IMG/VR virus record: IMGVR_UViG_3300029286_000140
Location: 1 to 35,020 of that record
DNA length: 35,020 nucleotides
Strand: one strand, 5' to 3'
Source: a virus
In this document: piece after piece, positions 1-35,000 of the stretch
Numbering within the stretch: position 1 is the stretch's first letter
Layout of the letters: every line of letters begins with the position of its first letter
Position numbers and translations under genes: made by a program
Notes under the pieces: model-generated
The model's database searches: none
Seen by the model: the letters and a program-made list of their open reading frames with translations, nothing else
Told to the model about the DNA's origin: nothing

Positions 1-916
1 TTTCCGCCAATATCTTCTGTTGCCTGCCGAAGAAAACGTCCGCCGGGGTGACGTTTTCAAGCGATTCGTGGTATCTGCTATGATTATAGTAATCGACGAA
101 CCGCCCGACTTCGGCTTCCAACTCCTGAGGCAGATAGAAATGCCGCAATAGGATCACATTCTTCATCGTCCGGTGATAGCGTTCGATCTTGCCTTGCGTC
201 TGGGGATGATAAGGCGCGCCGCGAGTGTGATCCATCCCTTTGTCTTCAAGATATTTCCGCAGTTCATCCGAAACATAGCATGAACCGTTATCAGACAGGA
301 GCCTTGGACGATGGCGCACTTTCACTTGACCGACGCCGGTTTCAGCGAGGGCAAGATCCAAGATCGTCTTCACATCTTCGGCTGACATCGTAGTGAAGAG
401 CATGCAGGCGATGATGTAGCGGGAGAAATCATCCAGCACGGTCGCAAGATAGTACCAGCCCCAGCCGACAATCTTGAAGTAGGTGAAATCGGTCTGCCAC
501 ATTTCATTAACCCGTTTGGTCGGGTTCTGAAACTTATCTGATGCCGAGATTACAACATAGTTCGGACTGGCGATCAGATCGAACGACTTCAGGATACGAT
601 AGACGCTCGACTCAGAAATGAAGTACTTCTCGCTGTCGGTGATATGCCAGGCGAGTTCCCTTGGCGTCAGTTCGGGACGTTCCAGCGCTATCTGCCTGAT
701 CCGATCACGTTCTGAGTCCGGAATGCGACTCCAAATACGTTTGGGCCGAGGCTTTACGTCAGCCAAACCATCGTAACCGTTGTCCAGAAACTTGCTGTAC
801 CAGTTGTAGAATGTGCTGCGCGGGATGTCAAGCTCCGCCAGGGTCCGCCTGGTCGAAAGGTTAGACTCTTCAACCAGATGGATGATTTCAACCTTTTCAG
901 ACTGGTTGTAGCGCAT
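1..916 (-). CDS. IS3-family transposase OrfB (integrase core), partial
   Basis: This is the catalytic DDE transposase subunit, which cuts and rejoins the IS DNA. The 305 visible residues start with a helix-turn-helix (about 5-45), followed by an rve integrase core. The acidic triad is visible as D143 (in WQTDFTYFK), D209 (in LLSDNGSCY) and E245 (in GKIERYHRT). Thirty-five residues separate the second and third acids, the classic DD35E spacing. The ATG at 916 overlaps the orfA stop (TGATG), but in this family OrfB is mostly made as an OrfAB fusion by -1 frameshifting. The frame is open at the window edge, so the C-terminus is missing only because the window ends. It looks intact otherwise. Confidence 0.93.
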   Translation of the reverse strand, partial: MRYNQSEKVEIIHLVEESNLSTRRTLAELDIPRSTFYNWYSKFLDNGYDGLADVKPRPKRIWSRIPDSERDRIRQIALERPELTPRELAWHITDSEKYFISESSVYRILKSFDLIASPNYVVISASDKFQNPTKRVNEMWQTDFTYFKIVGWGWYYLATVLDDFSRYIIACMLFTTMSAEDVKTILDLALAETGVGQVKVRHRPRLLSDNGSCYVSDELRKYLEDKGMDHTRGAPYHPQTQGKIERYHRTMKNVILLRHFYLPQELEAEVGRFVDYYNHSRYHESLENVTPADVFFGRQQKILAE

Positions 917-1302
917 CAATCGTCCAAGTCGCTGTCCAGTCCACGCAGACTTTTTTTTAGAATCTGGTTCTTGAGCGACAGGTCGGCTACCAGCTCTTTG
1001 AGCTGACCATTTTCACGGCGGAGATCGTTGACGTCGCTAGAATTGGCTTCACGGACGATATCGCCCTGTAAACGCCTTTTCCCTGCTTCGAGGAAGTCTT
1101 TGGACCAGTGGTAGTAGAGGTTTGGGGAGATACCTTCGCGGCGGCAGATCTCTGCGATGGCAGTTTCACCTCGAAGGCCTTCGAGGATGATGCGGATCTT
1201 GTCTTCGGCCGAGTACTTCTTGCGAGTGACGCGCTTGATGTCGCGGACAACGGCTTCAGGCTTCGAGATAGCCTGTGGTTTCGACTTGGTTCCGGGCTTC
1301 AT
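916..1302 (-). CDS. IS3-family transposase OrfA (DNA-binding subunit)
   Basis: This 128-residue protein has a basic N-terminus, a helix-turn-helix of the HTH_Tnp_1 type at about 28-75 (KYSAEDKIRIILEGLRGE, then EICRREGISPNLYYHW), and a leucine-zipper-like helix at about 92-120. OrfA proteins bind the IS ends and regulate transposition. The last codons contain the A-rich slip site that links it to OrfB. The length is typical of the family and I see no disruption. The element is therefore probably functional or recently so. Confidence 0.92.
   Translation of the reverse strand: MKPGTKSKPQAISKPEAVVRDIKRVTRKKYSAEDKIRIILEGLRGETAIAEICRREGISPNLYYHWSKDFLEAGKRRLQGDIVREANSSDVNDLRRENGQLKELVADLSLKNQILKKSLRGLDSDLDD
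951..958 (-). other. Programmed -1 frameshift slip site of the IS (A8G)
   Basis: On the minus strand a run of eight A residues followed by G lies in the last codons of orfA. Zero-frame reading is CTA AAA AAA AGT. After a -1 slip the new frame reads without a stop through the remaining orfA bases and enters the orfB frame. This is the usual way IS3-family elements make the OrfAB transposase. The run is long enough to slip without much help; I did not establish a downstream pseudoknot. Confidence 0.8.
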
Positions 1303-11863: not shown

Positions 11864-11966
11864 AATGCTTTAATCGACCTGATCTCCTTGACTTCGCATG
11901 GCACCCGACCGCACCTTCGAAGCGAAGATTAATTCGTTACAATCCAATAGGATAACCAAACAAACC
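11864..11966. promoter_or_regulatory. Divergent intergenic region between hub gene and amidoligase cassette
   Basis: This 103-base gap lies between two divergent starts and must carry at least the promoter of the plus-strand cassette. An AGGATAA segment about 14 bases before the ATG at 11967 could be its SD site. I see no convincing -35/-10 pair. Confidence 0.4.
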
Positions 11967-12887
11967 ATGCCAACCATCCAAAATCAAAACTTCGGCGTCG
12001 AGATTGAAGTCGCCGGAGCTGCCAGGCATCAAATCGCCCTGGCAGTCGCAGAAGCAACCGGCGGCAGCATTACCGCCGTCAATGCGCCAGGAGGTTACGA
12101 CGCCACGATCGTCACCGACCGACTCGAGCGAGAATGGAAAATCATGAACGACTCGTCAATCGCCGTCATCGGCGGTCATCGCGGATCGGAAGTGGTGACG
12201 CCGATCCTAACCTATGCCGATCTGCCAATCTTGCAGGAAGTCGTTCGCAAGGTCAAATTGGCCGGGGCGATGAGCCCCTCCTCGACCTCAGTCCATATTC
12301 ATGTCGACGCCAGACCGCACACACCACAGAGCCTTGCCAATCTGGCCAAAATGGTTTACAAGAATGAAGACTTGATATTCGACGCCCTGCAGGTGACAGC
12401 CGAACGCCGCTCCCGCTATACAAGGCCGATGGAATCAGACTTCATCGGAAAAGTGGCGAGGCATAAACCCCGGTCAGCAAGGCAGCTGAACGAATACTGG
12501 TACGGCAGTTACAATCCCAATCCGCAGCATTACGACATGAGCCGCTACCACGGTCTGAACCTGAACAACCTCTCCCGCGAGATTGGGACAATCGAGTTCC
12601 GGTACTTTAACGGAACCCTGCACGCCGGGAAGATCAAATCTTACGTCCAACTCTGCCTTGCGCTATCAGCCAAAGCCTTAAACTCCCGCGCCGCTAGTCA
12701 CAAGAAGATCCCGACCGACAATCCGAAGTTCAACTTCCGCGTGTGGCTGGTGGCGACCTTAGGGCTTAAGGGCGAAGAGTTCAAGACAGCCCGATATCAT
12801 TTAACCCACTATCTGCCTGGCAACAGCGCCTGGCGCTACGGCAGACCGACCAACCGCCACAACCAATTAGAAACAGAAGCACAATGA
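11967..12887 (+). CDS. Amidoligase (GS-like fold COOH-NH2 ligase family)
   Basis: A 306-residue protein of the Amidoligase_2 family, predicted ATP-dependent ligases that form amide bonds between carboxylates and amines on small molecules or peptides. Visible metal/ATP-site motifs are FGVEIEV (E12, E14), GSEVVTPIL (E75), TSVHIHVD (H110, H112), YHGLNLNNL (N198) and TIEFRYFNGT (E210, R212). All expected active-site positions appear intact. I chose the ATG at 11967, where family similarity begins, over an upstream start. It opens a plus-strand three-gene operon opposed to the surrounding phage genes. Its substrate is unknown. Confidence 0.85.
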   Translation: MPTIQNQNFGVEIEVAGAARHQIALAVAEATGGSITAVNAPGGYDATIVTDRLEREWKIMNDSSIAVIGGHRGSEVVTPILTYADLPILQEVVRKVKLAGAMSPSSTSVHIHVDARPHTPQSLANLAKMVYKNEDLIFDALQVTAERRSRYTRPMESDFIGKVARHKPRSARQLNEYWYGSYNPNPQHYDMSRYHGLNLNNLSREIGTIEFRYFNGTLHAGKIKSYVQLCLALSAKALNSRAASHKKIPTDNPKFNFRVWLVATLGLKGEEFKTARYHLTHYLPGNSAWRYGRPTNRHNQLETEAQ

Positions 12888-13333
12888 ATTCAGAACTCAT
12901 CACCTACTTCGCTTATGGCGCGAACCTCGATCTAAACGGGATGGGGAGACGCGCCAGTGGCTGCGACAGAATCAGTCGCGCCACGCTCCCGGATTACCGC
13001 CTCGTCTTTCGCGGGGTGGCCGACATCGAACCAATAGCAGGGGAGAAGGTCCGAGGCGCACTCTACCGGATCACGCCGCAGCATATGCGTGCCCTCGACT
13101 CCTTCGAAGGATACCCACGGCTCTATATCCGTAAAGAAGTGATAGTCGTTCCCGACGCGGGCGAACCAGTCATCGCGACGATCTATCAGATGGCGGGTCG
13201 GAAAGGTTACTCGCCGCCGCACGCCAGTTATCTGGACACCATACTCTCCGGTTGCCGCGATTGGGGCATCGAAGAGGAATACATACGGCAGCTGATCAAG
13301 GCTGCCGCAGAATCACATTTTGGAGAACGATAA
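12884..13333 (+). CDS. Gamma-glutamylcyclotransferase-like (AIG2/GGCT) protein
   Basis: A 149-residue GGCT/AIG2-fold protein. The substrate loop YFAYGANL is at 8-15, and the probable catalytic glutamate is E75 in ALDSFEGYP. These enzymes cyclise gamma-glutamyl groups to release pyroglutamate, reversing gamma-glutamyl amide bonds. It overlaps the amidoligase stop by four bases (ATGA), so the two are translationally coupled. Amidoligase-GGCT pairs recur in other genomes. This one may make and remove, or proofread, a gamma-glutamyl linkage; the substrate is not known. Confidence 0.85.
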   Translation: MNSELITYFAYGANLDLNGMGRRASGCDRISRATLPDYRLVFRGVADIEPIAGEKVRGALYRITPQHMRALDSFEGYPRLYIRKEVIVVPDAGEPVIATIYQMAGRKGYSPPHASYLDTILSGCRDWGIEEEYIRQLIKAAAESHFGER

Positions 13334-22241: not shown

Positions 22242-23102
22242 TCAGCTCCCGAGGATTTTGACTTTTGCCAGAAGGTCGGGGCGAAGGACGCCGTGCGCTA
22301 CTTCCATCCAGACCACCCAGCCGACCTTGAACTCGCTCGGGCGATTGTCGGCCTCGACCGCGATCTGTGCCCGAACTGCGAACTTGCCGACCTCCTCGTC
22401 CGGAATCAGCAGCACTTCAGAGGCTTTCGATGCTGCGGTGAGCAGCACTTGCGCGCCGGAGTAGTACTTGACGATTCCCTTCTCGCGCAGCTCCCGCTCG
22501 GTAACGGGGTCCAAGTCCCACGCACGGATGTCATTGAAGCGACCGCCGCGCATCACGATGTACTTCAGCGTCAAATCCTTATCTTCAAGGATCGAAATCG
22601 CCTGATGGAGCGCTGCCTCGGTCAAGGCGTTTCCCGCCACTTCGACTATGTTTGACTCCGGTACAGCAGCCGAAATCACCGAGACCGTCCGCTCATTCAG
22701 CTTCTTGCGGATCGCCGATCCCGCCCACTTCTCCATGTCGGTCAGGCGATAGACATCGCCATTGCGAAGGACAGAAACATCGACAGCGGGATTGGAGGCG
22801 ACGCGGTCGATTGGGAACTCGATTTCCGCCTCGTCCATGTTCGACTGATGCACCTGGCCGCCCGCACCGATCCAGTAGGCCTTGACTTCGCGCACCTTGT
22901 TATAGCGCGCCGGTTCGCCTTTCGGGAGCTTATGCTCAGCAAGAAGGAGCGTCGCGATCTCTTTCTGCTTGATCTCGTCGTAGATCGGCGGTGCGATCAC
23001 CGCGGCGATGGTACGCAGACCTTCGGGTCCCATCGCATAGGCTTCCCTAAGGTCGGCGGCGATGGCTTCGAATCGTTCTTGCGAAATTGCTTTACTTTTC
23101 AT
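22242..23102 (-). CDS. Major capsid protein (HK97-fold type)
   Basis: A 286-residue protein in the capsid slot, directly after the decoration protein. The first 35 residues are helical. Fold-typical segments are a beta-hinge/E-loop-like region (about 70-110), LTEAALHQAISILEDKDLTL (about 165-184), KYIVMRGGRFNDIRAW and KYYSGAQVLLTAASKASEVL, followed by a final P-domain/A-domain strand WVVWMEVAHGVLRPDLLAKV. The protease-scaffold upstream suggests HK97-like maturation. No delta-domain cleavage site is obvious. Confidence 0.75.
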   Translation of the reverse strand: MKSKAISQERFEAIAADLREAYAMGPEGLRTIAAVIAPPIYDEIKQKEIATLLLAEHKLPKGEPARYNKVREVKAYWIGAGGQVHQSNMDEAEIEFPIDRVASNPAVDVSVLRNGDVYRLTDMEKWAGSAIRKKLNERTVSVISAAVPESNIVEVAGNALTEAALHQAISILEDKDLTLKYIVMRGGRFNDIRAWDLDPVTERELREKGIVKYYSGAQVLLTAASKASEVLLIPDEEVGKFAVRAQIAVEADNRPSEFKVGWVVWMEVAHGVLRPDLLAKVKILGS

Positions 23103-23579: not shown

Positions 23580-24158
23580 TCAGGCAGCGTCCTGAGCGTC
23601 GCGGACTTCCCTTAAGCCCTTCGACAGCCGGTCGACCAGACCGCCAGGTTTATCGTCAACCAGCGCCGGATCGACCCCGGCGTCGCTCCGCATCACCTTC
23701 TTTTTCGCCGGATCATCTGGCTCCTTCTTGGCAGCCACTTCCGGCATGGTATCGACCATCGACTTGGCAGCGGTGAACGAGGCATCATCGAGTGAGGCCA
23801 GCCGTTCGATCTCTTTCGTCCGGTCTACGTCGCCGGCGAATGTCCGCCCGCGTTTCTCCCAGAGGGTGACCAATTCCGAGGCGCGGGTTCTGCGAGCAGC
23901 CTGCTGGCGCTCTTCTTCGTGAGCCTTCGCCTTACCCATCAGCTCGTCGACTTGTTTTTTCAGCGACTCATTCTCTTTGGTGAGCCGCTCGATCTCTTCG
24001 TCCTTCTTCGACTTGACGGCGGCCTCGGCGCGTTGCTTTTCGGCCGCTGCTGTCTCTTCGGCATTGGTCTTCGTCTCGAGCTTCTTTTTCAGCTCCTCGA
24101 CTTCGCCTTTCAGCCGTTCATTTTCAGTTTGCAGTTTTTTGATATCCTCGTCGGACAT
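23580..24158 (-). CDS. Nested scaffold protein, internal start (Nu3-like)
   Basis: Inside the protease-scaffold gene an ATG at 24158 is preceded by a perfect GGAGG (24168-24164) five bases away. In-frame translation would give a 192-residue protein: MSDEDIKKLQTENERLKG, a long coiled coil (about residues 4-120), then a Lys/Asp-rich C-terminus. This mirrors lambda, where Nu3 starts inside gene C. The separate scaffold would be the main assembly core, and the longer product would carry the protease. Strongly suggested by the SD, not proven. Confidence 0.65.
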   Translation of the reverse strand: MSDEDIKKLQTENERLKGEVEELKKKLETKTNAEETAAAEKQRAEAAVKSKKDEEIERLTKENESLKKQVDELMGKAKAHEEERQQAARRTRASELVTLWEKRGRTFAGDVDRTKEIERLASLDDASFTAAKSMVDTMPEVAAKKEPDDPAKKKVMRSDAGVDPALVDDKPGGLVDRLSKGLREVRDAQDAA

Positions 24159-27062
24159 CGCATCCTCCATTGATTTATCTTCTTGACTTGCTACCTTGGT
24201 GATTACCGCCCGTTCATCAGCTCCCTTCCGGTCGAGTAGTCCCATGCCGGTGAAGGTGATGTTGTGCAGGATTTCGTAAACCGGTTTGCCCTGATACTCA
24301 CGGCCTTTGTAATTCTTCAGGTGGGAGCAGTAATCGACTTTCGACTTGAACCTCCGGTGACAGACCGTGCACTCGCCTTCCTCGTAGTCGCACTCCATCG
24401 AGACCTGCCGGACGATCCCCTTCGTCATCAGCTTATAGGCGAGCTGAGAGTTGGGATTGACAGAAGTGTAGAGTTCGCCGTCACACTCGATATAGCCGTC
24501 GTCACTCTCGAAGAACCGCGAATCAACCACGCCGCCAACAATGTCGGTCAAGTCCTGCGAATGCTTCAGATCGACCTTGGTACCGACGGCGCTACGGTAA
24601 TTAGAACGCAACTCTTCCACTGTGAAGAAGTCGCCGTTACGGTTGGCTCCCCCATGCACCAGAATGAAGGTGAAGCGCTTATCTCCGGTCGGTAATACCT
24701 CTTCCGCTACAGCCAATGCCTCGAGTCTGATCTCGCCGGTGATGCTGGTGTGGCAGGCGCGTTCGGCTGCGGTCGGTAAGTTCTTCGAAGTCGATTTGTC
24801 ATCAGCCGCGCTCTTCATCGCCTTCGGCTTGCTGGCGATCAGCAGATATTCTTGAGCGTTCCTTCCCGGTCCCTCCGGCGCATAGCGCGCGATCCCGTAC
24901 GAGACCGCCCGACGACGAAATTCCACATTAGCGAATTTGTCGCCCAACAGTTCTTTCAATTCTGCGGCGGTGGGATAGGCTTTATCCCTGTAGCTCATCA
25001 TCAGACGAGCGCCAATAACCGACGTTCCCTCGATGAATCCTGCAATCAGCTTCTGCATCTCATCGCGGTTGTATTTGGTGCGCGAAGGGAAGTTGCGCCT
25101 CGGGTTGTCCCTGATTTCCTTTCCCTCCCAGCAGGTCATCAGTCCTTCGACGAAGTGGATTTTGTCCTCATAGTCATTGGAACTGAACTGCGTGATGTAG
25201 GGCGGATCGGCATAGACCAGATCGACGGCCACCTTCGGCAGCAGGCTCAGCGCTTCCTGATTGAATACCTTGCACTCTTGCCCGTTGTCGAAGACCAGAT
25301 CGTTGGCATCATGAATGCAATTGACAAACAGTTCCTTGAACGAAACCAGCGATGGATTGCCGAGATGGGTGTCGGGATAACGGCCACGTTCATCGGTGAC
25401 AGGCGCAGTCAATGACTTCTTTGAGCGGGAGAACTCGCCGTAACAGGCGCGAATCAGGCAGACCCGACCGAGCGCGAAGAGGGCGATATCTTTCTTATAG
25501 CCCGACAGATTCTGAATATTGGCGTAAGTGTTGTCCAGAAACTCCAGGATCGGTTTGGTGTAGTAATAGCCGAAGAAGGTCTTGGTGATGAAGTCGCCTG
25601 CCTTGGAATTGGGCTGCAGGATAGCTTCGATCTCGGCGTCGGAAATCGTGACGGTCGAGTTCTCAATTACCGCCCGAGCGATGTGATAGGGATAGGCGAG
25701 CAGGTCGTTTGAGATGACTCGCATTCCCTTCAACTTGTAGTAGTAACCGACGTTTGCTCCGCCGCTGAAAAGGTCGAGAACCGACCTGACGCCATCGGGA
25801 GTATGCTCCCAAATCCAGGTCAGCATATCGTGCTTCGAACCCATGAAAGCCGTCACACGGGCGTCTTCGTCCTTCTCGACTTTCCGACGAAGATCGGCGA
25901 CGGTGGTAAATGGTTCGTAGCGTGCGATAGCATCAGCGGTTGTCTCCGGCGTACAGACGAAGAGATGTTCGCGGGCGTGGGACGCTTCGCCGTCCCGGTT
26001 ACGTCCCGCCATCGTGTAATCGTGGTCGCGGGAGAACATTCGGGAAGAGCGGTTATGCTCCCCGATCAGCCGCTTCATTTCCGGTTCGTTGGGATAGGCA
26101 TGATCGCGGTAAGAAATCACCCAGTACTTGATTCCTTCTGCCTTGGCGAAGACGCCTTCAAAGAACTCGGCGGCATTGACTCTGGTGACCGTTTTATGAT
26201 CGCTGATGAACTTCTTCACCCGGCTCGACTCGTCGATCTCCAGTCCCTTCCAGTGGGTCATCAGCCCTTCGATGAAGTGATATGAAGTCTCGTAATTGGT
26301 GGTCGAGAACTCAGTCGCGTAAGGCGGATCGAAATAGGCGGCGTCGACATTTAGCTCTGGCAGAACGTCGGTGATTTCTCGATTGAAGGCTTTGTTCTCC
26401 TGTCCATTGTCAAAGACCAGCTCGCTGATGCGTATCGCTGTCTTGTGGAAGCGTTCCAGGAATTCTGCAGGGGTATCCGCCGTCCTGCCGTTATTGCCGC
26501 GGGAACTGGATGCGAAATGGCCGTAGCTTCCCGCTGCCGAAATACAGCTCTTACCCAAAGCAAAAAGTGCAATGTCCTTCTTATAACCCTTCAGGTCATC
26601 AATGTTAGCGCGGATGGTGTCGATCAGCGGATGAACGCCGGACTGGAAGAACTTCCCCCGAAAGGTCGTCTGAACGAAATCGCCAGCCTTGGCGTTCGGT
26701 TGCAGGAGTGCCTCGATCTCCTCGGTATTAAGGTGAACATTATTGTTCTCGATGATGGCGCGCGCTATATTGAAACAGTAATGCAATCGGTCGTTGGCAA
26801 AGACCTTTAAGCCCTTGGTCTTATACATGTAAGCGACCACCGCACTGCCGGAGAAGGCGTCGAGTACCGAACCAACTCCGTCCGGGGTCTGTGCCCAGAT
26901 CCAATCGGCAAGTTTCTGCTTGGAGCCGATATAGTTGGTGATATAGGGCGGCAAGTCGCGCGCGGAGTCGATGGTGTCATCGTCCGACGTGAGAGCCTGC
27001 GCCCGATGCAACTCGGCTTCGGTTTCAAGCAGGAATCTGATGCGCTGTTGTTCTAAGGTCAA
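23580..27062 (-). CDS. Tandem D12-class DNA adenine methyltransferase fused to prohead protease and scaffold
   Basis: This 1160-residue polyprotein has four parts. Residues about 40-375 and 403-745 are two homologous D12-class N6-adenine methyltransferases, each with a GSK-type start (YIGSKQK; FMGSKHD), an SAM motif (LDAFSGSAVV; LDLFSGGANV) and DPPY (245-248; 619-622). Residues about 770-955 resemble a U35/S78-like prohead protease: H834 (DLKHSQD) and S888 (RQVSME) are catalytic candidates, with a Cys/His cluster (C898, C901, C912, H914). Residues 969-1090 are a scaffold-like coiled coil; the tail is Lys/Asp-rich. The start is an unusual TTG with no clear SD; the next ATG is at residue 79. 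An ATG at 24818 (residue 749) could yield a methylase-free protease-scaffold. Confidence 0.78.
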   Translation of the reverse strand: MTLEQQRIRFLLETEAELHRAQALTSDDDTIDSARDLPPYITNYIGSKQKLADWIWAQTPDGVGSVLDAFSGSAVVAYMYKTKGLKVFANDRLHYCFNIARAIIENNNVHLNTEEIEALLQPNAKAGDFVQTTFRGKFFQSGVHPLIDTIRANIDDLKGYKKDIALFALGKSCISAAGSYGHFASSSRGNNGRTADTPAEFLERFHKTAIRISELVFDNGQENKAFNREITDVLPELNVDAAYFDPPYATEFSTTNYETSYHFIEGLMTHWKGLEIDESSRVKKFISDHKTVTRVNAAEFFEGVFAKAEGIKYWVISYRDHAYPNEPEMKRLIGEHNRSSRMFSRDHDYTMAGRNRDGEASHAREHLFVCTPETTADAIARYEPFTTVADLRRKVEKDEDARVTAFMGSKHDMLTWIWEHTPDGVRSVLDLFSGGANVGYYYKLKGMRVISNDLLAYPYHIARAVIENSTVTISDAEIEAILQPNSKAGDFITKTFFGYYYTKPILEFLDNTYANIQNLSGYKKDIALFALGRVCLIRACYGEFSRSKKSLTAPVTDERGRYPDTHLGNPSLVSFKELFVNCIHDANDLVFDNGQECKVFNQEALSLLPKVAVDLVYADPPYITQFSSNDYEDKIHFVEGLMTCWEGKEIRDNPRRNFPSRTKYNRDEMQKLIAGFIEGTSVIGARLMMSYRDKAYPTAAELKELLGDKFANVEFRRRAVSYGIARYAPEGPGRNAQEYLLIASKPKAMKSAADDKSTSKNLPTAAERACHTSITGEIRLEALAVAEEVLPTGDKRFTFILVHGGANRNGDFFTVEELRSNYRSAVGTKVDLKHSQDLTDIVGGVVDSRFFESDDGYIECDGELYTSVNPNSQLAYKLMTKGIVRQVSMECDYEEGECTVCHRRFKSKVDYCSHLKNYKGREYQGKPVYEILHNITFTGMGLLDRKGADERAVITKVASQEDKSMEDAMSDEDIKKLQTENERLKGEVEELKKKLETKTNAEETAAAEKQRAEAAVKSKKDEEIERLTKENESLKKQVDELMGKAKAHEEERQQAARRTRASELVTLWEKRGRTFAGDVDRTKEIERLASLDDASFTAAKSMVDTMPEVAAKKEPDDPAKKKVMRSDAGVDPALVDDKPGGLVDRLSKGLREVRDAQDAA

Positions 27063-27187: not shown

Positions 27188-28072
27188 ATGCCGGAGGAGA
27201 AGAAGGGGAAGGAGAGCCTCGAACACCTCGATGAGGCAATCGAGTCCTATGGAAAGTTGCGTGACAACGCCTACTCGGTTTCAAAAAACTTTCACAAGTT
27301 AGGAGAGTACGCTCAAGACACCATCGAGTATCTACAATTGCAGCGAGTAAGGGTTGTCTCGTTGGTTGACAAACCTTCCCCGATATACGAGGAATATGCG
27401 CGCAATATTGCGGCGACAGGATCAGCCGCTTCGATTCAGTGCGCAGAGTCCATGCAATCGTTAGATAGACCATACTCTGCCACGTTTGACCTTGTATGCT
27501 CTGGAATAACATCAAGTTACGTAGCTGCCCAGAGCTTGACACCGGCAATTGCCTCGGTAGGCAGGACACAGGTCATTGTCTTAGGGGGCGGGACACCGGT
27601 TACACCTGATAAGATTGAATATCGAGGTGCGCGATTGTCTCTGTCTGAGTTTAAAACAAAGATAGTAGAGATTGACCCCGAACTGGGAGTAAGTCTTGAT
27701 GGTGTGGTCGAGGCGATTGAAGGACAAAAGTCAGATTGGCGGCGTCACGCATTGAGCAGTTTCCGTGAGATTCTGGAACAAATCCTCAGGAAACTTGCAC
27801 CCGACGAAGTGGTGAAGAAGGCAGAGTGGTATGTCCGGAATCCTGATGCCGTGCGAGGCGTGACAAGGCACCAACGAATTAAGTTCATTGCTGAGAGCGC
27901 CAATGCAGAAGCGGGAATTCCCCCTTTGATTCAGAATTTGGCAGACAATCTGCTTGGCTTATTGGGAGACATGCTGGCTGGAGTTCATGCCACATCTCGC
28001 CAGACGGAGGACGAAATCACGTCCATGCTTGAGTCAGCTGCTTGGATGATCTCTAAGGTGGTTTGGAATTAG
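27188..28072 (+). CDS. pPIWI-associating nuclease-like protein (cargo gene)
   Basis: A 294-residue protein on the opposite strand to the phage genes. The C-terminal half (about 180-294) contains the pattern of predicted pPIWI-associating nucleases: WRRHALSSFREILEQILRKL, a variable loop with TRHQRIKFI, and a late VHATSRQTEDEI. The N-terminal half is helical, with a Gly/Pro-rich centre. These domains usually occur in prokaryotic Argonaute-like or other defence systems, but no Argonaute, CARF or ATPase gene is next to it here. Base composition is noticeably more AT-rich than the neighbours, suggesting separate acquisition. A defence or superinfection role is inferred only. Confidence 0.5.
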   Translation: MPEEKKGKESLEHLDEAIESYGKLRDNAYSVSKNFHKLGEYAQDTIEYLQLQRVRVVSLVDKPSPIYEEYARNIAATGSAASIQCAESMQSLDRPYSATFDLVCSGITSSYVAAQSLTPAIASVGRTQVIVLGGGTPVTPDKIEYRGARLSLSEFKTKIVEIDPELGVSLDGVVEAIEGQKSDWRRHALSSFREILEQILRKLAPDEVVKKAEWYVRNPDAVRGVTRHQRIKFIAESANAEAGIPPLIQNLADNLLGLLGDMLAGVHATSRQTEDEITSMLESAAWMISKVVWN

Positions 28073-28692: not shown

Positions 28693-29168
28693 TATCCGAT
28701 TGCCCTCTTTGCCGTCTCAATGTACTCTGACCTAATATCCGCCGCGACCTCATCCAACCAAGGATTCTCGCGCCGAAATGCCTGCCACTCTTCCCATATG
28801 GCATTGCCTTCAGGATCGACCTCTTTCGGGTCTATTGCACTGATGGTGTGCGTGAAGTCGTCGGCGACCGCCAGAAGGTTCCGGTCGTCGATCCAGTCAA
28901 ACTTGGTCACGTGCATCAGATGCGACCGCTGCATCGCATCCTCAAAGTGAATTTCCCGCAGGCAGCACCACCAAGTGATGCTCTGCAACTCGCCCGTCTG
29001 GCGATTAAAGAACGGCTGCGGTAACAAAACTTCAAATCCATCGAGATAAAAGGACGTCACAATCGAGTCGCCGTCCTTGATCAGACAGGCAGCGCCATCC
29101 CTCAACAACGCATCCAAGCGCGACTTGATCGTTGCTCGCTCAGATTCCAAGCGTTCAGTCAGGTTCAT
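28692..29168 (-). CDS. Uncharacterised phage protein downstream of kinase-like protein
   Basis: A 158-residue protein with helical ends and a central beta part (SIVTSFYLDGFEVLLPQPFF, then ITWWCCLREIHFEDAM). No family recognised. The ATG overlaps the kinase-like gene stop by four bases (ATGA). Tight coupling suggests it may act with the large upstream protein, for example as a partner or chaperone. Confidence 0.6.
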   Translation of the reverse strand: MNLTERLESERATIKSRLDALLRDGAACLIKDGDSIVTSFYLDGFEVLLPQPFFNRQTGELQSITWWCCLREIHFEDAMQRSHLMHVTKFDWIDDRNLLAVADDFTHTISAIDPKEVDPEGNAIWEEWQAFRRENPWLDEVAADIRSEYIETAKRAIG

Positions 29169-32100
29169 CTTGCTCTCACTACGATGTTCTCTATTTTCCG
29201 ACCATCCGGCAGTTGAGATACGCCATGCCGGCGGAAGATATCCAATACCTTCGTCCGCTCGGTTTCACTCTGAACAGCGACCAAGTCGAGGTTGTCGAGA
29301 ATGGTGACGCTGTTTTTAAATATTGTCTCGTCAGAATGATGGCCGTTTCCAAGCTTCTTGTAATCGTCAATCGTCGAGCGCCTGAACTTACGAACGTGAT
29401 CGTCGGTGACCCGTCCGTATTTGTCACAGTCATAGGTGATGGCGTCCATTCTCCGCAGTAGCGTCGGCTTGAAGTAAAACCCGGTATTCGAATCACCACT
29501 CGACGTGGGCAACTTTCTGATGCGCGTGAAGAAGTAGGATGCGCCGCCCGATTCCATGTCGGCCGAGGGACTCATCCCGCTGACTGGCACGCCGATCCGC
29601 ACCTTCTCAACCGTCGAGACCATCGCGCCATTGTTGGCAAGTGCGGTTTCAAGCATCTCCGGAAGACTACCTTTCCCGGTCACTTGATGGTAAAGTCCAT
29701 AGCCCTTCAGCTCCCGATTGATCTGCTCATCGCTTATATCGAACCGGAGTTGACTGCGCCATCCGGCGTCCCGCTTCTCTTTCCAACCGCTCGTCATAAT
29801 CGAGTACTTCCCTTCGGGATCATATCCCGGTAATTTCGTCACATCGGCAACACCCAACCGATCCGACCAAAAGCTCCTCATTGCCTGAACGCGCTCCGAA
29901 GGCGTGGCGTGATCGCTCTCGAACCGCTGTATCATCTTTTTCCATGCAAGAGAGCTGTCTTCCTTCAGGATATAAGCCTGCTTGGAGAGATACATCATCT
30001 CCGCCTGTTCGGTCGAGGCAAAAGTGGCGTCGACGCCGAGACGTTCCAACTTGCCGAGGAGCCTGTCTGCCGCCTCCGGTGTGCAGTCGGCCATCACCCG
30101 GATTTCCAATTGCCCTTGATGCGAATAGTAATTTTCACTGATCCAGGGGCGATAGATCCCTTCGACGCCATCACCGAGATCGATCTTATACTCAAGACCC
30201 GATGAAGAGAAGCTCGAGTGAACCTGACCAAATGACACCTCCTCACTTTGGACGGTGATCTTCCCACCGACGATCTGTTTCTTATCGCCATGCACGGTTG
30301 TCTGCTTCACTGCAGGCAGCAATTCGCCGGTCGGTTTGACCTGTTTTTCTGATTTCAGATAGCGCTCAAATGTCGCGATTTTCGATTTATCGGTCGTGCC
30401 AATCACGCGCTGAAGTTCATCCAGAACATTGAGGTACTGTTCTGCCATCCCTTTCAGATCTGCGTCGCCTTCTTTAGCTAAGCGCTGCAACGATGTCCGA
30501 AAATTCAGCGCCTTGTTGATCTTCTGTTTGCTGAAACTGTAGTTCCCTTGATTGAGGTGATGGTTCACCGATTTTACTGCAGTCAGGATGTCATCGAAGA
30601 ATACATCGTCCGCCAGCACTCGCCCCGCTGCCTGTCCGATAGTGTCATTGGGACCTGTGCTGAGTAGTGATAGAAGTTTCTTCTCGGACTCCGGGCGGAT
30701 CTTCATGCGCATAATGGTGCGGGTCTTCTTCTTCACCTCCTCGGTGTAAAGCAGGACATTCTGGTCTTCGATATCGACCGTATCGATAGGGAGTGATTTA
30801 CCTTGCCAACCAGCAACCTTTGCCTCTTCGATCAATTTCTCCCGTCCCTCCGGAATTCGCTCCCACTTGCCTTGCTTGGTGCCAGCGACTGGTTTCATCC
30901 CTGTGTCGAAAGTAAACACCGCCGATTTATCGCCAGTGCGCACCCTCAGCAAATCGGTATAGAACGCCTCGAAGTCGCGCCGGATGTTGTTCTTGCGAGC
31001 GAGCGATGTCTCGTAGAACTGCTTCAACTTCAGCGGCTGGCCGGCAAAGCGACGATCGGCGTAAGGACGTAGAATCTCCCGATAGGCGTCGTTGGTAATC
31101 TTCTCAATTTCTCTAATGGTCTGATAGGTCGATTGCAAATTCATTTCGATTTTCTTGTCCCGCCATGCCCTCATAACCGTGTTGTAGTAGGGTTCACCAA
31201 ACCCGAATCCTTGATTCGGATGATATTCAAGTGACAAGCTGTCATCGCCCAGATGCTTGAACAGCTGTCCCTTGTCGATGCCGAGTACTCGACCATCCTT
31301 CAACCGCAGGAACTGCTTTCCGTGGGCGTCATGGTTTGAGATCAGCCAGTCGATTACATGCTCCCTCTGCAGCTGCTCAAGCTCATGTGGCATCAATTTC
31401 TCCGGCAGGATATCGCGGAAATCGAAATCCTTCATCAAATCGGTGCGCCACTTCTGAATCGAACCCGCCTTCCGTCCCTGTCCCGGAACCTCCAACTGAA
31501 TGAACCTCACGTCAATCGCATCGGGATCGATCCGCCGCCCAATCTTGTAGGCAACCTCGTCACCGTAACCGCGGAATTCTTCGGCAACCGGTTTGAATAG
31601 CCATTTTTCACCCTTGGAGTCGGTGAAGAAGTACTTGGTATGCGCACCGTCGATGTCGGCTTTCCCTTGGAATTTGAATGGATCGCCATCCGCAAACTTC
31701 TGCCAAGCATCATCGACATCGGTTACTACAGCGGGCGATACCGGCGCTGATAATGGCGACGGTGGTGGAGTGACCGCAGGTTTAGGCGTCGATGGTTTTG
31801 CCGGTTGAGGCGCTTTCGACTTGGCCGCTTTTCCACCGTGTTTCTCCGCCCACTTTGCCCATTTTGATTCGATGTTTGACTTCGCTGCCTGGATTGCCGC
31901 CGGATCGTCCGAGGTCATCAGTACGATCAGATTATCTTTATCCGCCCATTGGTAATGCTTGATACCGCCCTTTTGGGCAAGCTCTTTTATATCTTTACCG
32001 CCCAGATTCTTCACAGAATTAGTGAAAGAGCCTTGGGCGTAATCGACCTGATTCTTAAGGGCAGACCATTCGGATTCGGAAAGGAGGCTCTTGGCCTCGG

Positions 32101-32641
32101 TCAAGGCTTTGCTCAAGTCATCGAAGGCGGTCAGCGCCTTCGTGAAATCCTGTGGTTTCAATCCCTGCAATCCCTGCAGACCTTCAGCAATCTTAGTTTT
32201 CAGGAGAGTCGCCTGTTCGACGGCGACCTGAACCGCCGTCTCCTGTTGGGTCTTTTTTTCAAAAAGTTGCTTCAATAGCGAGACTAATTCATCTTTCGAG
32301 CGGAGTGCCCCGATCTTGTGCTTCTTGATCAGCGCCTCGAGCAGGGGGCCTTTGAGCTTATCTAACTCCGCTCCCGGTTCGAGCGGTTTCAATAGGTTAA
32401 TGAACTCCGATTTGGTGCGGGCAATAGAGATTCCGTTCGATTGCGCGAGCTTCTGCAACTGCTTTACGGTCAGTTTTTCCAATTCGCCATGCGCCACAGC
32501 CTGGCCGACTTTGACCGCCTCGCCATGTTTTTGCGATGCGAGCGCGGCAATTTCAGCAGGCTCGAGGATGCAGTCAACATCCGACTCCGCTGCCGCTGCG
32601 ACCGCGGCGAGCGCCCAAGCGCATAAATTCGAGGTCTGCAT
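29165..32641 (-). CDS. Large head-module protein: SAP-like module plus HipA/PI-kinase-like domain
   Basis: This 1158-residue protein starts at the ATG at 32641 (TAATG overlap), not at the upstream reading inside the minor head gene. Residues 54-127 hold a double SAP-like module (LTVKQLQKLAQSNGISIART, then LRSKDELVSLL) shared with the KOW protein. A helical/coiled part and a Pro/Ala/Lys linker (about 265-305) follow. Residues about 310-560 resemble a HipA/PI-kinase-like fold: K350 (WLFKP), NHDAHGKQF (436-444) and GIDKG (454-458) match lysine, catalytic-loop and metal positions. The last 600 residues are unrecognised; the final 170 form a separate domain. Placed after portal and minor head genes, it may be a capsid-internal, ejected protein. 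Confidence 0.6.
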   Translation of the reverse strand: MQTSNLCAWALAAVAAAAESDVDCILEPAEIAALASQKHGEAVKVGQAVAHGELEKLTVKQLQKLAQSNGISIARTKSEFINLLKPLEPGAELDKLKGPLLEALIKKHKIGALRSKDELVSLLKQLFEKKTQQETAVQVAVEQATLLKTKIAEGLQGLQGLKPQDFTKALTAFDDLSKALTEAKSLLSESEWSALKNQVDYAQGSFTNSVKNLGGKDIKELAQKGGIKHYQWADKDNLIVLMTSDDPAAIQAAKSNIESKWAKWAEKHGGKAAKSKAPQPAKPSTPKPAVTPPPSPLSAPVSPAVVTDVDDAWQKFADGDPFKFQGKADIDGAHTKYFFTDSKGEKWLFKPVAEEFRGYGDEVAYKIGRRIDPDAIDVRFIQLEVPGQGRKAGSIQKWRTDLMKDFDFRDILPEKLMPHELEQLQREHVIDWLISNHDAHGKQFLRLKDGRVLGIDKGQLFKHLGDDSLSLEYHPNQGFGFGEPYYNTVMRAWRDKKIEMNLQSTYQTIREIEKITNDAYREILRPYADRRFAGQPLKLKQFYETSLARKNNIRRDFEAFYTDLLRVRTGDKSAVFTFDTGMKPVAGTKQGKWERIPEGREKLIEEAKVAGWQGKSLPIDTVDIEDQNVLLYTEEVKKKTRTIMRMKIRPESEKKLLSLLSTGPNDTIGQAAGRVLADDVFFDDILTAVKSVNHHLNQGNYSFSKQKINKALNFRTSLQRLAKEGDADLKGMAEQYLNVLDELQRVIGTTDKSKIATFERYLKSEKQVKPTGELLPAVKQTTVHGDKKQIVGGKITVQSEEVSFGQVHSSFSSSGLEYKIDLGDGVEGIYRPWISENYYSHQGQLEIRVMADCTPEAADRLLGKLERLGVDATFASTEQAEMMYLSKQAYILKEDSSLAWKKMIQRFESDHATPSERVQAMRSFWSDRLGVADVTKLPGYDPEGKYSIMTSGWKEKRDAGWRSQLRFDISDEQINRELKGYGLYHQVTGKGSLPEMLETALANNGAMVSTVEKVRIGVPVSGMSPSADMESGGASYFFTRIRKLPTSSGDSNTGFYFKPTLLRRMDAITYDCDKYGRVTDDHVRKFRRSTIDDYKKLGNGHHSDETIFKNSVTILDNLDLVAVQSETERTKVLDIFRRHGVSQLPDGRKIENIVVRAR

Positions 32642-33510
32642 TAAACCGCCGCCAACGGGAGACCCGACTGGCAGACGCGAGCACGGGCAGCATAGGTAGC
32701 ACACCGGCACTGCGGGTGGGGCATCGAAGGAACCTTGTCGATCCAGAACTCCTGTCCATCGAGGGGACCGCATTGGGGGCAGGTCCGCTCGTCGGCCGCT
32801 GTCACCCATACCACGCGAGTCACGCCAATCACGCCATAGAATTTCTGCCGCCCCTGTCCAAAAGCGCGAAGCGTCTCTGTCCGGGTGATGACTTCGATGC
32901 GATTCTGCGCCGACTTGAATACTGTTTTCCCGGCCAGACGGAAATCTTCTGGATCGGCGATAACACCGCCGATTTTCTCCCCAATTTTGGCAATGGAATC
33001 GCCGGTGACGATTCCAACCCCAATTTGTTGCTTGATGCTGTCTGCCAACTCGCGGGTCACATTTCCCAGCAGATTCAAATCGTAATTAACGAGGAAATCG
33101 AGCGCCGATCGGTCGACAAGACTCATTACCTGCCCGGCGAGCTTGACCTGATCCGCGCCCGAAAGGACGTCGTAATAGGGCAACCCAATCTGTCCGAACT
33201 CCCCGATACCGCGCTCAATCCCGCTCTGGAACGAAGTCTTCACCGCATCCTTCATCAGCAACGTTTGATTGGCTTTCAAGTCTCGAACAATCTCGTCAAT
33301 GCGCTGCTGGATGCCCTTCATCTGCTCGCGCCGAACCTCTAGTCCTTTCTTCAACAGCGTTCCATCGCCGATCCGAACCAGCTCCGCCTTCACACGAGTC
33401 TCTGCTTCGGAGAGCGCCTTCAGCATCGCATTCACCTGCTGCTCGCTGTAGAGGTCGCGAGAAAGAAGGCTCTTCAACACCGCCGCCTGTATTTTCTCGC
33501 CTTGCGTCAT
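32641..33510 (-). CDS. Minor head protein, Mu gpF/SPP1 gp7-like
   Basis: A 289-residue head morphogenesis protein. The diagnostic C-terminal region is clear: VITRTETLRAFGQGRQKFYG (about 208-227), then VWVTAADERTCPQCGPLDGQ (about 234-253) with CxxC and MPHPQCRC near 266-273. The N-terminal 170 residues are helical. These proteins bind portal and DNA inside the head and are often needed for head-tail maturation. It overlaps the portal gene by four bases. Confidence 0.92.
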   Translation of the reverse strand: MTQGEKIQAAVLKSLLSRDLYSEQQVNAMLKALSEAETRVKAELVRIGDGTLLKKGLEVRREQMKGIQQRIDEIVRDLKANQTLLMKDAVKTSFQSGIERGIGEFGQIGLPYYDVLSGADQVKLAGQVMSLVDRSALDFLVNYDLNLLGNVTRELADSIKQQIGVGIVTGDSIAKIGEKIGGVIADPEDFRLAGKTVFKSAQNRIEVITRTETLRAFGQGRQKFYGVIGVTRVVWVTAADERTCPQCGPLDGQEFWIDKVPSMPHPQCRCATYAARARVCQSGLPLAAV

Positions 33511-35000
33511 GCCGCCTCGTCTGCCTTTCGAAATTGCCGACAGGCGTTCTGATCGAAACGGCGCTCTTCGCCCGTCACTTGGCAGAGGTTATTCTCAGCG
33601 TCGAAGAAGGCGCAGCCGTCACATTTCGTCTCAGATGAGGCATTTGCGTACATTGCTTCAGTTTCCTTCTTCTCATCGATCTTCACCCGTCCCGTTTCCT
33701 TCGCGCCGTCAAGTCCCAACATCTCCTGCGCGGTACCCACCGACATCACGCCCATCTGAACCAACGAGACAATATCCTTGATGTCCCACGACATGTCGAC
33801 AAGCGTCCCCTCCTTCTTCCGGTTTGATTTCTCGACATCGGGATTGAGATCCATCTTCGTCTGAATAGTATTCTTCGAAATCAGGTTGCGGTCGTAAAGC
33901 TCGATCAGCAGCTTCTTCACTTCGACTTCGTTGGTCAAATCGATGTCGCTGAAGATGTATTGCAGGTTCTTATCACCGTAACCCTTCAGCTCCTTCCAGT
34001 CATCGAATATCCAGTCGAGCATCTCACGAGCAACCTGTTTGATCTCCTTCAGCATGATCACCATTTTCTGGAAGGCGATAGAAGCGGTGGCGAAGTTGGG
34101 ACCATCGCCAGTAACAAGCGATTTGGCGACGCCAAGCGCAACGATGATATCTTCCTTCACCTCCTTGACTTTGTCCTCTGTGTTCAAGACCTGGCCTTCA
34201 GTCCCGTAAGTTTCGGCGCGGACATAGAACGGCACGACCAGCCCCGACTTCAAATCCATCTTGTTGACTTGGTCTCGGATCGTCGTGATCATCTTTTGCG
34301 TCGGCATGATCACCTTATCGCCATACTTACCGCCGACGAGGATGAACCGCAATGGCGTCGTCCAGCGCTTGGCGATAGCCCGCTGCGCCCGACGGTAATC
34401 CCTTGACAGCTCAATCGACTCAAATGCTGGCGTCACCATCGAATTGCCTCGGGCAGAAAACTGCGGTGCATTCCATTTGCGGTGGATCAACTGTGTCACA
34501 GGCAACTCAATCTCTTCCTCGGAACCACCGTCGGGATCGGGTTTCTGAGTCGCCTTTGACATGTCACCCGCGGTGAATTCGAAATCGACCGAGGTGGGAT
34601 TGAGGCAGACAACCTTGACGATGTCGTTATGCTCGCCCTTCGACGCTTTGCCGTCAGTCCCGTAGCGCTTGAATCCGACACACTCGCCCTTAACCAGAAG
34701 CTGCAGAGTCATGTCTTTCAGGAAGCGATTGATATCGAGCAGCGAGAATAGGTCTGAGGCCTCGTTCCTGACGGTCTCATCATCGGCCGTAATCTTCACC
34801 TGATCGCCAATGGCAAAGGTCCGCCACGTATTGATAGTATTGGAGACGATCGGTTCCTCGACGTAGTATTCCCAAGCCTTACGGGCGCGCTCTTTCCAGT
34901 CGGTCGGAATCCCCTTAACGTCATACTCCGAGCTGAATACCCCGGAGGCGATGTCGGCTGCTGTTCCCATTAGTTCGGGATCGGCCTCAATCGTGGTCAT
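33507..35000 (-). CDS. Phage portal protein, possibly extended beyond window
   Basis: A 497-residue portal protein: the N-terminal part holds KAWEYYVEEPIVSNTINTWR (about 41-60), and a central LVTGDGPNFATASIAFQKM stretch (about 280-300) is highly typical of portals, with LGLDGAKETGR near 430. Twelve copies form the DNA gate at one head vertex. The C-terminal 40 residues add a four-cysteine cluster (C460, C463, C473, C487), unusual for portals. The frame stays open upstream of the ATG at 35000 to the window edge, so the real start may lie outside. Confidence 0.88.
   Translation of the reverse strand: MTTIEADPELMGTAADIASGVFSSEYDVKGIPTDWKERARKAWEYYVEEPIVSNTINTWRTFAIGDQVKITADDETVRNEASDLFSLLDINRFLKDMTLQLLVKGECVGFKRYGTDGKASKGEHNDIVKVVCLNPTSVDFEFTAGDMSKATQKPDPDGGSEEEIELPVTQLIHRKWNAPQFSARGNSMVTPAFESIELSRDYRRAQRAIAKRWTTPLRFILVGGKYGDKVIMPTQKMITTIRDQVNKMDLKSGLVVPFYVRAETYGTEGQVLNTEDKVKEVKEDIIVALGVAKSLVTGDGPNFATASIAFQKMVIMLKEIKQVAREMLDWIFDDWKELKGYGDKNLQYIFSDIDLTNEVEVKKLLIELYDRNLISKNTIQTKMDLNPDVEKSNRKKEGTLVDMSWDIKDIVSLVQMGVMSVGTAQEMLGLDGAKETGRVKIDEKKETEAMYANASSETKCDGCAFFDAENNLCQVTGEERRFDQNACRQFRKADEAA

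What the first reader, a model, noticed from the sequence alone, without database searches (positions are those of the whole stretch)
23580..27062. Two DNA adenine methyltransferases fused to a prohead protease and scaffold
One continuous frame encodes two homologous D12-class methyltransferases (both with intact DPPY), then a U35-like protease-type domain and a coiled-coil scaffold. Protease-scaffold fusions are known; I know of no characterised case with tandem methyltransferases in front. It may place a methylase inside the prohead, tie DNA methylation to packaging, or have arisen by fusion of neighbouring genes. The highly similar copies point to an internal duplication.
Basis: partly seen in the sequence, partly recalled or inferred. 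Interest (0 to 1): 0.8.

Follow-up and report, generated by a model that had tools for sequence, protein, structure and literature searches.

The report
Methylases fused to phage head protease
A phage gene joins one or two DNA-methylating enzymes to the protease and scaffold that build the virus head; the joined form is conserved across a large, undescribed phage group, which suggests these phages build a DNA methylase into their forming heads.

Summary
Window 23580-27062 (minus strand) is one open frame of 1160 codons: a conserved N-terminal peptide, two D12 N6-adenine methyltransferases (DPPY in both, E. coli Dam-like fold), a serine protease of the T4 gp21/herpes-assemblin fold with a zinc knuckle, and a coiled-coil scaffold. 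It is not a misassembly. Of 83 non-redundant relatives with intact 5' ends, 47 have two methyltransferases and 33 have one, fused in frame; the 3 exceptions look broken or rearranged. Finished Desulfosarcina chromosomes carry it. Two claims need correcting. The copies are only 42% identical, and the duplication predates the family: all MT2s form one clade, and single-methylase forms have probably lost MT2. The frame also hides a nested gene: a start codon with a strong Shine-Dalgarno at the protease/scaffold boundary is present in 89 of 91 relatives, as in lambda C/Nu3, whereas no conserved start precedes the protease. So, as far as sequence tells, scaffold is made alone in excess and every protease molecule carries a methylase. 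Best reading: the scaffold part carries protease and methylase into the prohead, proteolysis frees the methylase, and it acts on packaged or injected DNA, like P1 DarB. Prohead location and timing are inferred, not shown.

The parts
23580..27062 (-). Complete fusion ORF, 1160 aa: N-peptide, MT1, MT2, protease, scaffold; TTG start without a clear Shine-Dalgarno
   Evidence: the conserved N-terminal peptide starts at this TTG also in the 85%-identical relative L002
27009..27062 (-). Conserved N-terminal peptide (residues 1-18, MTLEQQRIRFLLETEAEL; family consensus FATDxxRLAFLLExDAxL), followed by a poorly conserved acidic linker
   Evidence: F[LI][LI]E before MT1 in 74 of 80 fused ORFs, 0.94 expected after shuffling; low model confidence there
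25938..26951 (-). MT1, D12-class N6-adenine methyltransferase (residues 38-375), DPPY at residues 245-248
   Evidence: dN/dS 0.024 against L002
24822..25865 (-). MT2, second D12-class methyltransferase (residues 400-747), DPPY at residues 619-622
   Evidence: dN/dS 0.031 against L002
24756..24821 (-). Fast-evolving, predicted disordered linker MT2-protease (residues 748-769), just ahead of a conserved HT[ST] motif; hotspot for ~100-aa insertions in relatives
24177..24755 (-). Prohead protease domain (residues 770-962), T4 gp21/assemblin fold; predicted catalytic His834 and Ser888; zinc knuckle C898/C901/C912/H914
24164..24168 (-). Internal Shine-Dalgarno GGAGG ahead of the scaffold start
   Evidence: conserved in the family
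23583..24158 (-). Nested scaffold ORF (residues 969-1160, 192 aa) from an in-frame ATG at 24158; coiled coil and C-terminal helix
23115..23510 (-). Capsid cement/decoration protein directly downstream (synteny)
   Evidence: weak PF22758 and phrog_673 matches; neighbour of the fusion in relatives
22242..23102 (-). Major capsid protein, likely partner of the scaffold domain
   Evidence: phrog_2522 E 7.8e-54; 135 of the 152 loci with any hit to these neighbour genes
32641..33510 (-). MuF-like minor head protein (context)
   Evidence: PF04233 E 1.9e-10
33507..35000 (-). Portal protein (context)
   Evidence: phrog_2739 E 7.6e-49

Best explanation
The gene encodes a prohead-core polyprotein. Two translation products come from one frame: the full-length MTase-MTase-protease-scaffold protein from a weak TTG start, and an excess of scaffold alone from the internal GGAGG/ATG site. 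The shared scaffold domain puts a minority of full-length molecules inside the forming prohead, as lambda gpC is brought in through its Nu3 part. The gp21-type protease then cleaves scaffold and linkers and frees the methylase domain(s) inside the head. The methylase is retained and acts on phage DNA during packaging, or more likely after ejection with it, protecting the entering genome from host restriction in cis as P1 DarB does. The tandem form probably methylates the two strands of a non-palindromic site, as other two-domain D12 methylases do; the single form a palindromic one. Shown by sequence: the fusion, its fixation in the family, intact catalytic motifs under strong purifying selection, the protease fold (predicted model), the internal start signal, the head-gene context. 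Inferred: location in the prohead, cleavage, retention, ejection, target site.
For: Fusion fixed: 80 of 83 non-redundant 5'-complete relatives; all 80 viral loci found with protease-only patterns carry at least part of an MTase in the same frame; in 434 sampled genomes every intact copy is fused. Both MTases keep DPPY in 48/48 tandem proteins and the single one in 34/34; dN/dS mostly 0.01-0.12, as low as or lower than protease and scaffold, so catalysis of both matters. Protease fold with invariant Ser and a conserved His. Internal start codon with Shine-Dalgarno at the protease/scaffold boundary in 89 of 91, against 7.4% of background windows; in the window's clade the SD comes from different codons than elsewhere, so the nucleotides, not the amino acids, are kept. 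No conserved start lies before the protease (ATG plus any SD in 10 of 80), so the protease appears always made with the methylase. N-terminal peptide ends in L-x-E, the cleavage motif of T4 gp21, which removes 10-19-residue capsid-targeting propeptides (PMC9026906). P1 DarB is a head-packaged methylase that protects phage DNA in cis and is co-ejected (PMC5512222, PMC12810830).
Against: No proteomic, methylome or virion data. The methylase could act before assembly. A conserved HT[ST] motif and many L-x-x-E-[AG] sites lie in the linker, but no cleavage site is established, and cleavage could release the MTase in the cytoplasm. The scaffold's excess is inferred from start-signal strength alone. 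The target-site inference is indirect: nearest free relatives are the C-terminal halves of AlwI-type methylases and a methylase beside a DpnII-family enzyme, only about 32% identical. GATC is not avoided in the window (271 sites, obs/exp 0.85), which is uninformative.
Confidence: 0.5

Rival explanations
1. The fusion is only an expression device: the methylase works in the cytoplasm late in infection, methylating replicated phage DNA before packaging, and the linked protease releases it during or before assembly. Nothing needs to be packaged.
For: The MT2-protease linker is disordered, variable in length and fast-evolving, fit for release; relatives of the MTase belong to ordinary restriction-modification systems; many phages carry free methylases that act this way (own knowledge).
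Against: A separate methylase gene would do; yet intact relatives never carry protease and MTase as separate genes. The scaffold is apparently produced on its own but the protease is not, so MTase is bound to a head-directed domain.
Confidence: 0.3
2. The methylase licenses packaging: tethering it at the prohead couples methylation of the packaging site to genome entry, as Dam methylation of pac controls P1 packaging (own knowledge).
For: Protease, portal and scaffold act at the same place and time; the MTase is fixed to the prohead-building protein in all intact members.
Against: No pac site or methylation-dependent terminase identified; two MTases of distinct lineage are not needed to mark one site; not tested.
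Confidence: 0.1
3. The MTase domains serve as a non-catalytic DNA-binding or spacer part of the prohead core.
For: One lineage has lost a whole MTase copy without visible harm.
Against: DPPY intact in all 48 tandem and 34 single proteins and dN/dS mostly well under 0.1 over both MTases; a spacer would not keep these.
Confidence: 0.05
4. Misassembly, or a lost stop codon in this one phage.
For: The window is a metagenomic virus record of 35 kb with one probable frameshift elsewhere (MuF region).
Against: Same fusion in L002 at 85% identity, in finished chromosomes of two Desulfosarcina isolates and in about 80 other non-redundant loci.
Confidence: 0.01

Closest known systems
Lambda gpC/Nu3 (protease-scaffold with a nested scaffold gene)
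   Same: Protease followed in frame by scaffold; internal start with Shine-Dalgarno gives scaffold alone; lies just upstream of decoration and major capsid genes.
   Different: Lambda has no methyltransferase; the protease here models as T4 gp21/assemblin, not shown to be of gpC's own family.
T4 gp21 / herpesvirus assemblin proteases (clan SH)
   Same: Best solved fold matches (Z 10.9 and 10.8), invariant Ser and conserved His; N-terminal peptide ends in L-x-E, the gp21 cleavage motif.
   Different: Zinc-knuckle insert, N-terminal methyltransferases, C-terminal scaffold in the same chain.
phrog_27806 (798-residue profile, 'DNA methyltransferase')
   Same: Covers MT2-protease-scaffold of this protein at E 4.5e-285: the single-MTase form of the same fusion.
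   Different: Annotated only as a methyltransferase; the protease, scaffold, nested start and tandem form are not noted there.
P1 DarB / polyvalent head proteins
   Same: A phage adenine methylase that travels in the head and protects DNA in cis.
   Different: DarB is a methylase-helicase in a separate protein whose packaging depends on DarA and Hdf; no helicase here, and the methylase is joined to protease and scaffold.
M.AlwI / M.FokI-type two-domain D12 methylases
   Same: Two D12 domains in one chain; the C-terminal half of AlwI-type enzymes is among the nearest free relatives of MT1/MT2 found.
   Different: MT1 and MT2 arose by their own duplication inside this family and have no restriction endonuclease in the head-gene neighbourhood examined.
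Prohead proteases of Gordonia phage Pupper, Rhodococcus phage E3, Bacillus phage G
   Same: About 30% identical protease domain, two genes ahead of the major capsid protein in Pupper and E3.
   Different: Protease at or near the N-terminus, no methyltransferase.

Membership tests
D12-class N6-adenine DNA methyltransferase (PF02086) | Profile match above the curated cut-off, motif I and DPPY | tested here: met
   143.4 bits against cut-off 22, two stretches; LDAFSGSA/LDLFSGGA and DPPY in both copies
D12-class N6-adenine DNA methyltransferase (PF02086) | Dam-type fold | tested here: met
   Foldseek: E. coli Dam and Mcbe1 among best hits, E 4e-6 to 5e-4; MT2 against T4 Dam Z 14.1 over 221 residues
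D12-class N6-adenine DNA methyltransferase (PF02086) | Adenine methylation activity | not testable with these tools
   needs enzyme assay or methylome
Clan SH prohead protease (T4 gp21 / assemblin) | Fold | tested here: met
   5jbl Z 10.9, VZV protease Z 10.8
Clan SH prohead protease (T4 gp21 / assemblin) | Conserved Ser and His | tested here: met
   H78 and S132 of alignment A1 invariant in 20 sequences; strict motifs for both in 89 of 93; superposition on the solved active site was not done
Clan SH prohead protease (T4 gp21 / assemblin) | Proteolysis of head proteins | not testable with these tools
   needs assay
   no U35 profile named in the Pfam, PHROGs or NCBIfam hits; no HK97-type comparison was made
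Lambda C/Nu3-type nested protease-scaffold | In-frame internal start with Shine-Dalgarno at the scaffold boundary | tested here: met
   89 of 91 non-redundant members
Lambda C/Nu3-type nested protease-scaffold | Two protein products seen | not testable with these tools
   needs proteomics
P1 DarB-like methylase-helicase | SF2 helicase joined to the methylase | tested here: not met
   no helicase among the Pfam hits of P0001
Type IIS two-domain methylase (FokI/AlwI type) | Two D12 domains in one chain | tested here: met
Type IIS two-domain methylase (FokI/AlwI type) | Cognate type IIS endonuclease next door | tested here: inconclusive
   neighbours examined are head genes and a pPIWI-associating nuclease; not every window ORF was scanned
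T4-type capsid-targeting propeptide | Short conserved N-terminal peptide ending in L/I-x-E | tested here: met
   F[LI][LI]E, usually with Glu 13-18 residues from the start Met, in 74 of 80
T4-type capsid-targeting propeptide | Targets cargo and is cleaved off | not testable with these tools
   needs experiment

The most novel reading that the evidence does not exclude
A self-delivering anti-restriction device built into the head assembly machine: in a widespread phage group the methylase is made as part of the protease-scaffold, enters every prohead, is cut free by its own protease, stays with the DNA and is ejected with it to methylate the entering genome, each tandem domain modifying one strand of an asymmetric site.
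Probability: 0.33. Interest if true: 0.82.

Novelty: new variant of a known kind. Interest (0 to 1): 0.63.

Why it matters
Phage methylases are usually free enzymes thought to act in the cytoplasm; P1 DarB is the known head-packaged case and needs separate carrier proteins. Here the methylase is part of the protease-scaffold in a phage group found with Desulfobacterota, Calditrichota, Kiritimatiellota, Acidobacteriota and other bacteria, including cultured Desulfosarcina and Desulfatitalea strains. It makes a clear question testable: is DNA methylation coupled to head assembly and genome entry? It would also give a natural system for loading enzymes into capsids, and it corrects database entries that call the head protease-scaffold simply 'DNA methyltransferase'.

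Tried and rejected
Misassembly or lost stop: rejected. Recent internal duplication: rejected; 42% identity and MT1/MT2 clades older than the family. MTase-less relatives as a natural ancestor: L078 is rearranged, L074 has N bases at the junction and L044 is broken, L175 is a decayed copy; none is a clean unfused form. Separate translation of protease plus scaffold without MTase: no conserved start. The N-terminal motif on other proteins of the same loci, as a shared targeting signal: none found. PDB sequence search with the whole protein: no hits. GATC avoidance as a hint to target site: uninformative. Pfam for the linker inserts of relatives: no families. Literature searches for a methyltransferase fused to a prohead protease: nothing relevant; only open-licence papers are held, so this does not prove absence. 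PHROGs and Pfam give only weak support for the protease by sequence; structure prediction was needed.
Full report
What is there. The finding lies on the minus strand: 27062 down to 23580, 1160 codons from a TTG without a clear Shine-Dalgarno. The TTG is credible because the N-terminal peptide that is conserved in the whole family begins exactly there, and does so in the 85%-identical relative L002. The chain holds a conserved N-terminal peptide, MT1 (38-375), MT2 (400-747), a linker, a protease (770-962) and a coiled-coil scaffold (969-1160). Pfam finds D12 methyltransferase in two stretches at 1.3e-41. The MT1-MT2 model matches E. coli Dam, T4 Dam and Mcbe1. The protease-scaffold model (core pLDDT above 90) matches T4 gp21 (Z 10.9) and varicella-zoster protease (Z 10.8) first, with other herpes assemblins behind. 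His834 and Ser888 are the predicted catalytic residues, and C898/C901/C912/H914 form a probable zinc knuckle; these are conserved.

It is a family feature. A search with the whole protein gave 50 viral and 35 genome loci; a second search with protease-only patterns gave 80 viral loci, and every one carries at least part of an MTase in the same frame. After removal of identical copies, 83 ORFs with complete 5' ends remain: 47 tandem, 33 single, 3 without MTase, and those three are broken, masked by N or rearranged. Sampling without regard to the MTase, 10 of 395 genomes of the Desulfosarcina phylum and 5 of 39 of the Calditrichota MAG's phylum have the protease; all intact copies are fused, and the one unfused copy, L175, has lost its catalytic residues. 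D. alkanivorans carries one tandem and one single version in one finished chromosome. The order portal, MuF, fusion, cement, major capsid protein is kept.

Where the two methylases come from. MT1 and MT2 share 42% identity. In a tree of 80 domains all 31 MT2s form one clade (100/100) and MT1s with all single forms make up the other side (94/88), so the duplication came before the family spread and the single forms, which nest among MT1s, most simply lost MT2. Both copies are kept active: DPPY in all 48 tandem and 34 single proteins, dN/dS mostly 0.01-0.12 in both, while the linkers evolve faster. The nearest free relatives are the C-terminal halves of two-domain methylases beside AlwI-type endonucleases (phage phi1605, plasmid pGS18) and a methylase beside a DpnII-family endonuclease. 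This points to an origin in restriction-modification systems and, by analogy, to an asymmetric target for the tandem form; that is inference.

A hidden nested gene. At the protease/scaffold boundary the window has GGAGG, 5 nt, ATG (24168-24156). In the family, 81 of 91 have an ATG with a Shine-Dalgarno there and 8 more have GTG or TTG behind a perfect AGGAGG; background windows have one in 7.4%. In the window's clade the SD is written in other codons than elsewhere, so it is the nucleotide signal that is kept. No such site precedes the protease (ATG plus any SD in 10 of 80). The expected products are therefore much scaffold alone and a little full-length protein, as in lambda C/Nu3, with every protease molecule bound to a methylase. 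That the scaffold is in excess is inferred from signal strength, not measured.

The N-terminus. Seventy-four of 80 fused ORFs have F[LI][LI]E between start and MT1, usually with the Glu 13-18 residues from the start Met, 0.94 expected by shuffling, followed by a variable acidic linker. T4 gp21 cleaves after L/I-x-E and removes N-terminal capsid-targeting propeptides of 10-19 residues (PMC9026906). The likeness is suggestive; no other protein of these loci carries the motif.

How it probably works. Shown: the fusion is fixed, both enzymes look active and selected, the protease fold (predicted) and the internal start are supported, and it sits in the head operon. Inferred: the scaffold part brings protease and methylase into the prohead, the protease cuts linkers and scaffold, and the methylase stays with the DNA and acts on it, most likely after ejection, as P1 DarB does (PMC5512222, PMC12810830). 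The chief rival is cytoplasmic methylation with the fusion as a mere co-expression device. The absence of any intact unfused relative and the absence of a protease start speak for the first; no proteomic data decide it.

Known or new. The single-MTase form is in PHROGs as phrog_27806 under 'DNA methyltransferase'. No paper describing the fusion was found, in a library limited to open-licence papers. It is best called a new variant of the protease-scaffold kind, with a real chance of being a new way to load a DNA-modifying enzyme into a phage head.

Noticed in passing
window 29165-33510, minus strand: The MuF domain (32641-33510) and the 1214-aa ORF after it lie in different frames here but match in one frame in relatives such as L003, L057 and L060: a frameshift or sequencing error in a giant MuF-type minor head protein (phrog_6577).
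   Followed up: partly
window 27188-28072, plus strand: A pPIWI-associating nuclease-like gene (PF18165, E 4.9e-17) lies on the opposite strand just upstream of the fusion and gave no hit in the related loci: a cargo or defence gene.
   Followed up: partly
window 11898-13333, plus strand: An amidoligase (PF12224) and a gamma-glutamyl cyclotransferase-like (GGACT) gene form a pair on the opposite strand within the tail genes.
   Followed up: no
window 2-1302, minus strand: IS3-type transposase genes (by eye from the translation) at the left edge of the record.
   Followed up: no
L012, L018, L149, L155, L161; L011, L054, L055, L056, L066; L046, L165, L078 (linker before the protease): The MT-protease linker carries one of at least three unrelated insertions of about 100 aa (ALNGARGGV-type, HRWFAAGW-type, WTLDKAKxW-type) without Pfam match; an insertion hotspot.
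   Followed up: partly
G002 (Desulfosarcina alkanivorans chromosome) 301544 and 389727: Two prophage loci in one chromosome, one with a 1288-aa tandem form and one with an 802-aa single form.
   Followed up: no
L144 3250-7284; L018/L095: In-frame stop (L144) and frameshift (L018) inside the tandem MTase region: possible loss of MT2 under way, or sequencing errors.
   Followed up: no
window 1-35020: CTAG (0.22) and GGCC (0.44) are strongly under-represented against a Markov expectation.
   Followed up: no
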